Shown here piece by piece: positions 6,297 to 9,501 of a stretch of 64,000 nt of DNA. A model generated the notes under the pieces. That model worked only from the letters and a program-made list of their open reading frames with translations. It searched no databases and was not told where the DNA came from. Position 1 is the first letter of the stretch. The number at the start of each line of letters is the position of its first letter. The DNA lies in assembly GCF_000264945.2 (NCBI RefSeq), contig NZ_CP013070.1:806001-870000 (forward strand), given 5' to 3'. The translations under genes and the position numbers were made by a program. The DNA is from Sphingobium indicum B90A (GTDB lineage Bacteria > Pseudomonadota > Alphaproteobacteria > Sphingomonadales > Sphingomonadaceae).

Positions 6297-6318
6297 GGCA
6301 CCGGGCACGTTTTTCTCA

Positions 6319-6400
6319 CCCGTTCGGGCTGAGCCTGTCGAAGCCCCTTTCTTTTCTTTCGAAAGGAAGATCGGCCCTTTGACAAGCTCAGGGCGACGGA
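6319..6400. repeat. Palindromic repeat, family iii (full copy)
   Basis: An interrupted inverted repeat: CCGTTCGGGCTGAGCCTGTC at the left, a TTTCTTTCGAAAGGAA centre, and CCCTTTGACAAGCTCAGGGC at the right. It fills most of the ribF-ileS gap. A 22-base fragment of the same family has invaded the repeat at 53840-53954. Confidence 0.8.
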
Positions 6401-6422
6401 TTTTTGGTTGTTCTGGATACCC

Positions 6423-9383
6423 ATGACCGACGCACCCGACTATAAAGCCACCGTCTTCCTCCCCGTCACCGACTTCCCGATGAAGGCGGGCCTCGCGCAG
6501 AAGGAACCGGCGATCCTCGCGCAGTGGGAAGCGATGGACCTCTACGGCAAGCTGCGCGAACGGCGGAAGGGCCGGGAACGTTTCATCCTGCACGACGGCC
6601 CGCCCTACGCCAATGGCGACATCCATATGGGCCATGCGATGAACAAGGTGCTGAAGGACATCATCGTCCGCAGCCAGTCCCTGCTCGGCAAGGACGCGCC
6701 CTATGTCCCCGGCTGGGACTGCCACGGCCTCCCCATCGAATGGAAGATCGAGGAGGAATATCGCAAGAAGAAGCAGAATAAGGACGAGGTTCCGGCCCAG
6801 GAATTCCGCGCCGAATGCCGCGCCTATGCCGACAAGTGGGTCGGCGTGCAGAAGGAACAGTTCAAGCGCCTTGGCGTCATGGGCGACTGGGACGATCCCT
6901 ATCTCACCATGAAGTTCGACGCGGAGGCGACCATCGCCGGCGAACTGCTGAAATTCGCGGAAAGCGGCCAGCTCTATCGCGGCGCGAAGCCCGTCATGTG
7001 GTCCCCGGTCGAAAAGACCGCGCTGGCCGAGGCGGAGGTCGAATATGAGGACATCGTCTCGACCCAGATCGACGTGGCGTTCGAGATCGTCGAAGCGCCG
7101 AACGCGCCGGAACTGGTCGGCGCGCATGCGGTGATCTGGACGACGACCCCGTGGACGATCCCGGTCAATCAGGCTTTGGCTTATGGGCCTGAGGTTGAGT
7201 ATGCTCTGGTTGAAACTTATCGGGGTGATGCCGCTTGGTATGAGCCGGGCAAACCGACCCCGCTGGTTCAAAGCTATAAATATCTAATTGCCAAGGATTT
7301 GCTTGAGCAGTTCCATAAGCGCGTGGAGTATGGGTTGCCCAGCTTTCCGCCGGGCGAGGTTCTGAGGACGTTCAAAGGCTCCCAACTCGCCGGAGCCGTC
7401 GCCCGCCACCCGATGCACCATCTCGGTGGCTTCTTCGCCAAGCCCCGCCCGTTCCTCGCGGGCGATTTCGTCACCACCGACGCGGGCACCGGCCTCGTCC
7501 ACATGGCCCCCGACCATGGCGAGGACGACTTCGCGCTTTGCAAGGCGAACGGCATAAACCCCGTCTTCGCCGTCGAAAATGACGGCAAATATCGCGAGGA
7601 CTGGCTCTGGCTCGGCGGCCAGGGATCGGTCATCAACCCGAAATTCGTCGGCAAGGACGGCCCGATCTGCACCAACCTGCGCGAAGCGGGCGGGCTGCTG
7701 GCGGCCTCCGACGACTTCAGGCACAGCTACCCCCATAGCTGGCGCTCCAAGGCGAAGATCATCTTCCGCTGCACCCCCCAATGGTTCATCCCGATGGATC
7801 GCTCCGAATCCGTCATGCCAGCGCAGGCTGGCATCTCAGGCCTCAGTGCGCCAACGCCTGAGACCCCAGCCTTCGCTGGGGTGACGAATGTGGGGCAGGG
7901 CAACGCCGCCACCCTGCGCGACCTGGCCCTCAACTCCATCGAACACACAAGATGGGTGCCCGAACGCTCGATCAACCGCATCCGCTCGATGGTGGAAGGC
8001 CGCCCCGACTGGGTCATCTCCCGCCAGCGCGCTTGGGGCGTCCCCATTGCCCTCTATGTCCATCGCAAGACCGGCGAATATCTGGTTGATAAATCGGTCA
8101 ACGCCCGCATCATCGAAGCGTTCAAGGGCGCAGGCGCCGACGCATGGTTCGGCGCAGACCATCAGGCGCTGCTCGGCCCCGATTACGACCTTAACGACTA
8201 TGAGGTGGTGAACGACATTCTCGACGTCTGGTTCGACAGCGGCTCCACCCACAGCTTCGTGGTGGAAGGCCGTTACGGTCCCGACGCCCGCGCCGACCTC
8301 TATCTCGAAGGGTCCGACCAGCATCGCGGCTGGTTCCAGTCCTCCCTGCTCGAAAGCAGCGGCACTCGCGGCCGCGCGCCCTATGGCGCGGTCCTCACCC
8401 ACGGCTTCGCGCTGGACGGGCAGGGCCGGAAGATGTCCAAGAGCCTGGGCAATGTGGTCGATCCGCTGAAGGTCATCGCCGAAAGTGGCTCCGACATCTT
8501 GCGCGTCTGGGTCGCCAGCACCGATTATTTCGACGACGTCCGCATCGGCAAGGAAGTGCTGGCCGGTTCGTCCGACGCCTATCGCAAACTTCGCAACAGT
8601 TTCCGATACTTGCTTGGCGCTCTTTCCGACTTTTCCGAAGAAGAGAAGCTGCCCGTCGCGGAAATGCCGGAACTGGAGCGCTACATGCTCCACCTGCTCG
8701 CCAGGCTCGACGCCGACCTGCGCAGCGTGGTCGACAAGGCGGCGGGCAGCGAGAATTGGCTGGAATTCAGCCGCTACACCCGCGCCCTGTTCGACTTCGT
8801 CAACAGCGACCTGTCCGCCTTCTTCTTCGACATCCGCAAGGACTGCCTCTATTGCGACGCCAAGGCCGACCCCAAGCGCCGCGCCTATCGCACCGTGCTC
8901 GACACGCTGTTCCACGCGCTGGTCCGCTACGCCGCGCCGATCATCCCCTTCACCGCTGAGGAAGTGTGGCAAAGCCGCTATCCAAACCCCGAAGAAAGCG
9001 TCCATTTCCTGGAATGGCCGGAAGTTGATGCCGCTTGGCTGAGCCAAAGCCTCGACGGCAAATGGGCTGAAATTCGCAACCAGCGGAATCAGGTCAACGA
9101 GGCCATCGAACCCCTCCGCCGCGAAAAGATCATCCGTTCCAGTCTGGAAGCCGATGTCTGTATTTCCGATTTAGCAGCTATTTTGAACGACATTCGTAGT
9201 GTTTCTGAACAGGACTTGTCCGAATATTTCATCGTTGCGAACGTGGCGTTTGAGCAAGGCATTGAAGGCATCGTGGTCAAGCCCAGCGACTGGCACAAAT
9301 GCGGCCGCTGCTGGCGCCTGCTTCCCGAGGTCGAGGAAGACGGCGCCCTCTGCGACCGCTGCGAAGAGGTGCTGGGCGCATAA
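6423..9383 (+). CDS. ileS: Isoleucyl-tRNA synthetase
   Basis: It charges tRNA-Ile and edits misactivated valine. At 986 residues it is somewhat longer than usual. The class I motifs are visible: PYANGDIHMGHAMN (HIGH site, about residue 60) and GRKMSKSLGN, plus the C-terminal zinc ribbon with CGRC and CDRC. Residues 463-488 are encoded by a REP-like palindrome (7811-7886) inserted in frame just after the WFIPMD segment. Two stretches, about 7165-7370 and 9140-9290, look less GC-rich than the rest of the gene. ATG 6423 is chosen; an in-frame ATG at 6408 adds only five residues. Confidence 0.95.
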   Translation: MTDAPDYKATVFLPVTDFPMKAGLAQKEPAILAQWEAMDLYGKLRERRKGRERFILHDGPPYANGDIHMGHAMNKVLKDIIVRSQSLLGKDAPYVPGWDCHGLPIEWKIEEEYRKKKQNKDEVPAQEFRAECRAYADKWVGVQKEQFKRLGVMGDWDDPYLTMKFDAEATIAGELLKFAESGQLYRGAKPVMWSPVEKTALAEAEVEYEDIVSTQIDVAFEIVEAPNAPELVGAHAVIWTTTPWTIPVNQALAYGPEVEYALVETYRGDAAWYEPGKPTPLVQSYKYLIAKDLLEQFHKRVEYGLPSFPPGEVLRTFKGSQLAGAVARHPMHHLGGFFAKPRPFLAGDFVTTDAGTGLVHMAPDHGEDDFALCKANGINPVFAVENDGKYREDWLWLGGQGSVINPKFVGKDGPICTNLREAGGLLAASDDFRHSYPHSWRSKAKIIFRCTPQWFIPMDRSESVMPAQAGISGLSAPTPETPAFAGVTNVGQGNAATLRDLALNSIEHTRWVPERSINRIRSMVEGRPDWVISRQRAWGVPIALYVHRKTGEYLVDKSVNARIIEAFKGAGADAWFGADHQALLGPDYDLNDYEVVNDILDVWFDSGSTHSFVVEGRYGPDARADLYLEGSDQHRGWFQSSLLESSGTRGRAPYGAVLTHGFALDGQGRKMSKSLGNVVDPLKVIAESGSDILRVWVASTDYFDDVRIGKEVLAGSSDAYRKLRNSFRYLLGALSDFSEEEKLPVAEMPELERYMLHLLARLDADLRSVVDKAAGSENWLEFSRYTRALFDFVNSDLSAFFFDIRKDCLYCDAKADPKRRAYRTVLDTLFHALVRYAAPIIPFTAEEVWQSRYPNPEESVHFLEWPEVDAAWLSQSLDGKWAEIRNQRNQVNEAIEPLRREKIIRSSLEADVCISDLAAILNDIRSVSEQDLSEYFIVANVAFEQGIEGIVVKPSDWHKCGRCWRLLPEVEEDGALCDRCEEVLGA
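7811..7886. repeat. REP-like palindrome inserted in frame inside ileS
   Basis: Two tandem hairpins, TGCCAGC GCAG GCTGGCA and CCCCAGC CTTC GCTGGGG, are bounded by CGTCA and TGACG and joined by CTCAGG/CCTGAG arms. The two stems differ in sequence yet each is self-complementary, as expected of a REP pair. The layout resembles family i. The frame reads straight through, adding about 25 residues to IleRS (VMPAQAGIS ... TPAFAGVT). Confidence 0.85.
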
Positions 9384-9401: not shown

Positions 9402-9468
9402 GTGCTCCTGCGAAGGCAGGAGCCCAGTCCAGAGGTCCGAACTGGACTCCTGCCTTCGCAGGAGCACG
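9402..9468. repeat. REP-like palindromic repeat, family ii (copy 2)
   Basis: It has the same arms as the copy at 2961-3026 (GTGCTCCTGCGAAGGCAGGA and complement) with a slightly different centre. It lies between ileS and lspA. Confidence 0.85.
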
Positions 9469-9501
9469 GTGCGCTAAATTTCGCAGGTTGAGCAGTCATT
9501 G

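What the first reader, a model, noticed from the sequence alone, without database searches (positions are those of the whole stretch)
7811..7886. REP-like palindrome inserted in frame within the essential gene ileS
The 76-base element has two self-complementary hairpins and the outer CGTCA/TGACG ends of the intergenic family i REPs, yet it sits inside isoleucyl-tRNA synthetase just after WFIPMD. It keeps the frame open and adds about 25 residues (VMPAQAGIS...TPAFAGVT). This recalls Rickettsia palindromic elements that create new peptide segments in existing proteins. It suggests that REPs in sphingomonads can survive in a protein loop.
Basis: partly seen in the sequence, partly recalled or inferred. 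Interest (0 to 1): 0.7.

Follow-up and report, generated by a model that had tools for sequence, protein, structure and literature searches.

The report
Palindromic repeats colonising a synthetase loop
A short repeated DNA palindrome sits inside an essential bacterial gene and reads on as an extra protein loop, and in related bacteria the same loop is often filled by quite different repeats, so a few loops in core enzymes seem to act as recurring parking places for selfish DNA.

Summary
Window 7811-7886 is a 76-nt pair of CGTC-type REP hairpins in frame in ileS (residues 464-488). In the genus (Sphingobium) 84 of 90 loops read have no REP. REPs inside genes, including tRNA synthetase genes of sphingomonads, are in print (PMC3733652), and Rickettsia has coding palindromes, one in ileS (PMC3767692), so the basic phenomenon is known.

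What I did not find in print (searches listed under Tried and rejected) is the pattern around it. The loop after WFIPMD shrinks to 2-7 residues in 11 of 162 IleRS compared; in 47 of 162 it holds one of four unlike classes of palindromic repeat. Three of the four classes were tested and are dispersed in the genomes tried. The two closest relatives of the window carry other repeats at this site. GlyRS-beta has two such sites and ValRS at least one; RpoB, the control, has no internal insert.

Best explanation: non-autonomous repeats insert, and selection keeps only in-frame, stop-free copies in a few tolerant loops, which are refilled over time. For the REP class alone, one old insertion with many losses is not excluded. 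How the repeats move is unknown; the genome has no Y1 transposase match.

The parts
6423..9383 (+). ileS, isoleucyl-tRNA synthetase, 986 aa, host gene of the element
   Evidence: open frame; solved IleRS chains match; relatives named isoleucine--tRNA ligase
7800..7910 (+). variable loop, residues 460-496, between WFIPMD and TLR
   Evidence: 2-69 residues long in relatives; pLDDT under 50 over residues 463-494
7811..7886 (+). 76-nt REP dimer, read as residues 464-488
7811..7837 (+). left REP hairpin (CGTC head, 8-bp stem, 4-nt loop)
7860..7886 (-). right REP hairpin, opposite orientation

Best explanation
The element is a non-autonomous CGTC-type REP dimer living in a protein loop. Shown by sequence: it lies in frame in an intact ileS; the loop is dispensable in length; the same loop in other species holds unlike palindromic repeats, and those tested are dispersed in their own genomes; glyS has two such sites and valS at least one. 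Inferred: several repeat families insert at many places; hits in essential genes mostly kill; the survivors are in frame, free of stops and in an exposed turn; so the same few loops are filled again and again, with decay, deletion and replacement between. The added peptide is a tolerated, disordered segment without a needed function. How the repeats move is unknown.
For: 47 of 162 loops carry a recognised repeat and 11 are short. 40 of these 47, but 3 of 104 unlabelled long loops and 0 of 11 short ones, fold at z <= -3 against mononucleotide shuffles (short loops were not folded). Fills of three other species gave 43, 5 and 29 hits in their own genomes, self and both strands counted. The five-state label needs at least 36 changes on a FastTree tree without the loop. 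P0002 and P0003, the closest proteins, hold other repeats. glyS: site A filled in 25 of 30 loci, site B in 17 of 28 bounded, by my reading. valS: repeats in 5 of 20. rpoB: 4068 nt in 33 of 33 full-length same-genus matches.
Against: No exact filled/empty pair with a defined target was found for the window's REP. In pairs of ileS REP carriers the REP is as alike as, or more alike than, the flanks, which also fits one old REP insertion with many losses. The tree count cannot tell gain from loss, and support is FastTree's local value. 104 of 162 loops are long without a recognised repeat, so much of the length variation is not shown to be repeat-derived. The SAN class was not tested for dispersal. 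Translation was not measured.
Confidence: 0.8

Rival explanations
1. One ancient insertion diverged into the different fills now seen, the common-origin reading that the R. japonica authors lean to for RPE-4, -6 and -7.
For: For the REP class: ileS REPs of L001, L008, L029, L030 and L034 are 82-97% alike, and in the four pairs L001/L008, L001/L029, L008/L029 and L029/L030 the REP (0.93, 0.87, 0.91, 0.97) is as alike as or more alike than the 300-nt flanks (0.82-0.93).
Against: Across classes the fills are unlike in sequence, and fills of L038, L004 and L062 match dispersed repeats of their own genomes; divergence from one insert would not give that.
Confidence: 0.07
2. The fills spread between species by recombination of ileS pieces and not by movement of the repeats.
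For: The window's REP is nearer to the ileS REP of L008 (0.93) than to full copies of its own genome (78-80%). REP and VEG labels scatter on the tree nearly as shuffled labels do (52 and 87 of 500 shuffles as low).
Against: The 300 nt on either side of the window's REP are nearest to species without a REP; unlike classes still need separate arrivals. A short exchange is not excluded.
Confidence: 0.08
3. The insert has a useful role, for example as an mRNA hairpin that tunes translation or as a binding loop.
For: The whole element is a strong hairpin (-51.2 kcal/mol).
Against: Unlike sequences and short loops occur at the same place in related species.
Confidence: 0.05
4. The insert is not translated but skipped, as reported for palindromic elements in a yeast mitochondrion (passage in PMC6649704).
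For: Only the precedent.
Against: The loops were read from open frames (frames were picked as open, so this is no independent count), and complete REP translations are 25 residues in 11 of 11 ileS proteins among the 120 listed, the length at which both arms share an open frame.
Confidence: 0.03

Closest known systems
CGTC-tagged REPs, intragenic copies (PMC3733652; outline, sections 6, 14, 15, part 1 of 17 and passages seen)
   Same: CGTC head, 8-bp stem, 4-nt loop, dimers, alphaproteobacteria including sphingomonads, copies inside genes including tRNA synthetases of E. litoralis and S. alaskensis
   Different: The paper reports REPs in genes of one category mostly at different sites (Xanthomonas recB excepted); here one site is filled by unlike repeat classes in many species. 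Which synthetases it lists was not seen (Additional file 3 not held).
Rickettsia palindromic elements RPE-4, -6, -7 (PMC3767692; passages and section 12 read)
   Same: In-frame palindromic inserts in solvent-exposed parts of housekeeping proteins, RPE-7 in ileS, different groups near the same site
   Different: There the groups share a motif and a common origin was favoured; here the fills are unlike and those tested are dispersed in their genomes. The position of the Rickettsia ileS insert was not compared.
REP/RAYT system (GTAG REPs; abstract of PMC3733652)
   Same: Short hairpin repeats, non-autonomous, often paired
   Different: CGTC and not GTAG; no Y1 transposase match in the window's genome
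Coding palindromes of nematomorph mitochondria (PMC6649704; abstract and passages seen)
   Same: Inverted repeats inside protein-coding genes
   Different: Those are perfect, up to 284 bp and mitochondrial

Membership tests
CGTC-1 REP (PMC3733652) | unpaired CGTC head | tested here: met
   both halves begin CGTC on their own strand
CGTC-1 REP (PMC3733652) | 8-bp stem and 4-nt loop | tested here: met
CGTC-1 REP (PMC3733652) | A-T pairs in first and second stem positions (almost invariable) | tested here: inconclusive
   met in the left hairpin (AT...); in the right one the second pair is C-G (sequence)
CGTC-1 REP (PMC3733652) | short tail, mostly CCA | tested here: inconclusive
   the tail reads CTC here; the paper says most, not all, fit CCA
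CGTC-1 REP (PMC3733652) | several copies per genome | tested here: met
   14 hits in the own genome, self and both strands counted
CGTC-1 REP (PMC3733652) | head-to-head dimers predominate | tested here: inconclusive
   a dimer with CGTC ends outward; the figure that defines head and tail was not seen
Rickettsia palindromic element | member of the repeat families defined in Rickettsia | not tested
   no RPE sequence was compared; filed as works-like only
REP/RAYT | GTAG head | tested here: not met
   heads are CGTC
REP/RAYT | Y1 (PF01797) transposase in the genome | tested here: not met
   0 matches in G000; the same search rang in 5 of 14 control genomes

The most novel reading that the evidence does not exclude
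A lineage of REP has become adapted to life inside proteins. Complete REP translations are 25 residues (76 nt) in 11 of 11 ileS proteins and in 12 of 14 readings in glyS loci; at that length both arms share one open frame on either strand. Two of eleven non-coding dimers sampled have that length. Such an element would spread from loop to loop of core enzymes and compete there with other repeat families. Against it: non-coding copies in other genomes are about as alike to the window's copy (0.88-0.90) as glyS copies are (0.88), two dimers in the UPF0004/Radical_SAM gene are 80 nt, and a plain filter on length and frame would give the same.
Probability: 0.2. Interest if true: 0.8.

Novelty: new variant of a known kind. 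Interest (0 to 1): 0.6.

Why it matters
[quoted passage not shown] In sphingomonads unlike repeat classes, dispersed where tested, fill one turn of an essential enzyme, so the question can be settled there by comparing strains. It also shows a route by which selfish DNA lengthens core enzymes, and it gives a natural series of inserts for testing how much a synthetase loop can bear.

Tried and rejected
Chance palindrome: rejected. Native loop: rejected. RAYT-driven REP: no Y1 match in the genome. Recent jump from a listed copy of the own genome: unlikely. Exact empty site or target duplication: 13 pairs printed, none defined. A loose motif screen of the variable CP1 part of ileS gave mostly false matches (YGEG); of its 27 rows only L003 and L036 read clearly as repeats to me. 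The coding test by codon-position GC missed a known ileS case, L185, so its negatives are soft. Five large window ORFs were meant as control genes; four had no Pfam match, so valS and rpoB were used. An ungapped flank comparison is void for L034 upstream (0.44-0.48, an indel shift).

Paper searches. Only open-licence papers are held, and for all but four I saw listings only. Besides PMC3733652 and PMC3767692 I saw nothing on repeats filling a synthetase loop in sphingomonads. Species names behind E. litoralis and S. alaskensis are recalled, as is the essential role of ileS.

Rows dropped before the count of 162: L105-L108, L132, L184 (duplicates), L129 and L138 (loop not bounded). L052 was counted as REP by hand; L146 was 'other' in the tree count and VEG later. 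The class names REP, GEG, VEG and SAN are mine, set by motifs in translations; GEG probably pools several families.

Full report
What is there. ileS runs from 6423 to 9383 (986 aa). Inside it, 7811-7886 is a 76-nt inverted pair of hairpins with CGTCA/TGACG ends, 8-bp stems and 4-nt loops. Both halves and the whole fold better than every one of 200 shuffles, and a degenerate REP pattern finds only these two halves in the window, with none expected. It is read in frame as residues 464-488. The own genome gave 14 hits at E <= 0.01, self included and some places counted on both strands; five other full dimers are 80-82 nt.

Who has it. IleRS was found in 150 of 150 genomes searched. I read the loop between WFIPMD and TLR in 90 loci of the genus (90 of 91 genus genomes of that search; G026, incomplete, was left out). 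Six hold a REP reading: L001 (window), L008, L029, L030, L034, and a short one in L052. The two closest proteins, P0002 (Sphingobium, 89%) and P0003 (S. indicum IP26, 91%), carry two other fills.

The loop as a hotspot. I added 80 named loci. After six duplicates and two rows whose loop was not bounded were dropped, 162 loops remained, from 2 to 69 residues. Eleven are short (2-7), 104 are longer without a recognised repeat, and 47 carry the translation of a palindromic repeat class: REP 8, GEG 23, VEG 11, SAN 1, mixed 4. The class names are mine. As a check that does not use the peptide motifs, 40 of the 47 fold at z <= -3 against 100 mononucleotide shuffles, but only 3 of the 104; two of these three, L137 and L166, may be further repeats. 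The 11 short loops were too short to fold. Within the 90 genus loci 21 are labelled, of which 17 reach z <= -3; 1 of the other 69 does. Three fills were taken back to their own genomes: two of the GEG class (L038, L004) gave 43 and 5 hits and one of the VEG class (L062) gave 29, self and both strands counted. With the REP itself, three of four classes are shown to be dispersed; SAN was not tested.

History. On a FastTree tree of the 162 proteins without the loop and the CP1 variable part, the five-state label needs at least 36 changes; taken singly REP needs 7, GEG 21, VEG 10, SAN 5. The count cannot tell gain from loss. REP and VEG labels scatter nearly as shuffled labels do (52 and 87 of 500 shuffles as low). 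Neighbours differ: L167 is short and L183 filled, L141/L178/L180 are short and L146 filled, L128 has a plain loop and L175 a longer filled one. For the REP class an old insertion with many losses stays possible: in the pairs L001/L008, L001/L029, L008/L029 and L029/L030 the REP (0.93, 0.87, 0.91, 0.97) is as alike as or more alike than the 300-nt flanks (0.82-0.93). The flanks of the window's REP are nearest to species without a REP, so recent transfer of a long ileS stretch from a REP carrier is not supported; a short exchange is not excluded.

Other genes. The best relative of the S. fontiphilum ileS REP within that genome lies in the gene for the GlyRS beta subunit, and so do the two best in G001; in G004 and G074 the best is again ileS. 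GlyRS-beta has two such loops. Site A is filled in 25 of the 30 best-scoring loci and nearly empty in five (my reading). These loci were ranked by a query that itself holds a REP, so the share is biased upwards; many further genomes have matches split at this point. Site B is filled in 17 of the 28 loci that the pattern bounded (my reading). The window's own glyS holds at both sites translations of the palindrome class that also lies just after ileS in the window, 9402-9467. ValRS has repeats in 5 of 20 genes fetched, four at one site and of three kinds; the 20 were chosen partly for length. A gene with UPF0004 and Radical_SAM domains carries a REP between the two domains in the window's genome and in S. 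fontiphilum. As a control, RpoB matches are 4068 nt in 33 of 33 full-length same-genus rows, and 12 aligned RpoB of the genus show gaps only in the first 131 and the last 11 of 1513 columns. Of 60 loci from two other repeat families in the own genome only one place, listed twice, looked intragenic (an aminotransferase gene). That count is a floor: only 40 of 123 first-look candidates were scored for one family, the glyS copies were not among the 60, and the test misses known cases.

Length and frame. Complete REP translations are 25 residues (76 nt) in 11 of 11 ileS proteins found among the 120 listed, and in 12 of 14 readings in 30 glyS loci; the two others are 24 and 28 residues, and a disrupted copy lies in glyS of G004. 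Of eleven non-coding dimers sampled two are 76 nt (L247, L250) and nine are 78-82; two in the UPF0004/Radical_SAM gene are 80 nt. At 76 nt one frame on each strand is open through both arms. This may be a plain filter or a lineage adapted to coding sequence. Non-coding copies of other genomes (L251 0.90, L247 0.88) are as alike to the window's copy as glyS copies are (0.88), which speaks for the filter. The sample is small and was ranked by similarity to a coding copy.

Structure. An AlphaFold2 model of the window's IleRS (mean pLDDT 75.2, pTM 0.65) gives pLDDT under 50 over residues 463-494 and finds bacterial IleRS as best folds, 8c9f first. Several other stretches are also under 50, so low confidence is not special to the loop. 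In S. aureus IleRS (1ffy) residue 417 matches D459 and residue 419 matches L498, so the loop replaces a tight turn. Exposure is inferred; no contact to tRNA was measured.

What is known. Di Nocera et al. (PMC3733652) describe CGTC REPs, say that these apparently lack a dedicated transposase, and report REPs inside genes, including tRNA synthetases of E. litoralis and S. alaskensis (outline, sections 6, 14, 15, part 1 of 17 and passages seen). The R. japonica paper (PMC3767692; passages and section 12) lists RPE-7 in ileS and weighs hotspots against one diverged insertion, leaning to a common origin while not excluding hotspots. PMC6649704 (passages) and PMC12306157 (passages) gave context only.

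Verdict. The kind is known; the new part is the repeated filling of one loop, and of loops in other synthetases, by unlike repeat classes. How the repeats move is open: no Y1 transposase match in the genome.

Noticed in passing
window 7150-7374 and 9025-9324: Two stretches inside ileS are poorer in G+C (0.49-0.55) than most of the gene. Both fall in parts that vary between species (CP1 and near the C terminus), which hints at a mosaic gene.
   Followed up: no
L003 and L036, ileS CP1 part (also P0003): The CP1 variable part reads RHSREGGNPSP..., a translation that looks like another palindromic repeat, so ileS may have a second site.
   Followed up: partly
window 6318-6402 and 9402-9474: Two other palindromic repeats flank ileS in the intergenic stretches; they gave 45 and 80 hits in the own genome, both strands counted.
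   Followed up: partly
valS loci L420-L433: Apart from the repeat site, ValRS has two further loops after SRQLWWG that are short in some species and filled with unlike sequence in others.
   Followed up: no
L092 and L256: A REP lies between the UPF0004 and Radical_SAM domains of one protein in two species.
   Followed up: partly
L344: An aminotransferase class V gene of the own genome carries a repeat of the class found at window 6318-6402.
   Followed up: partly
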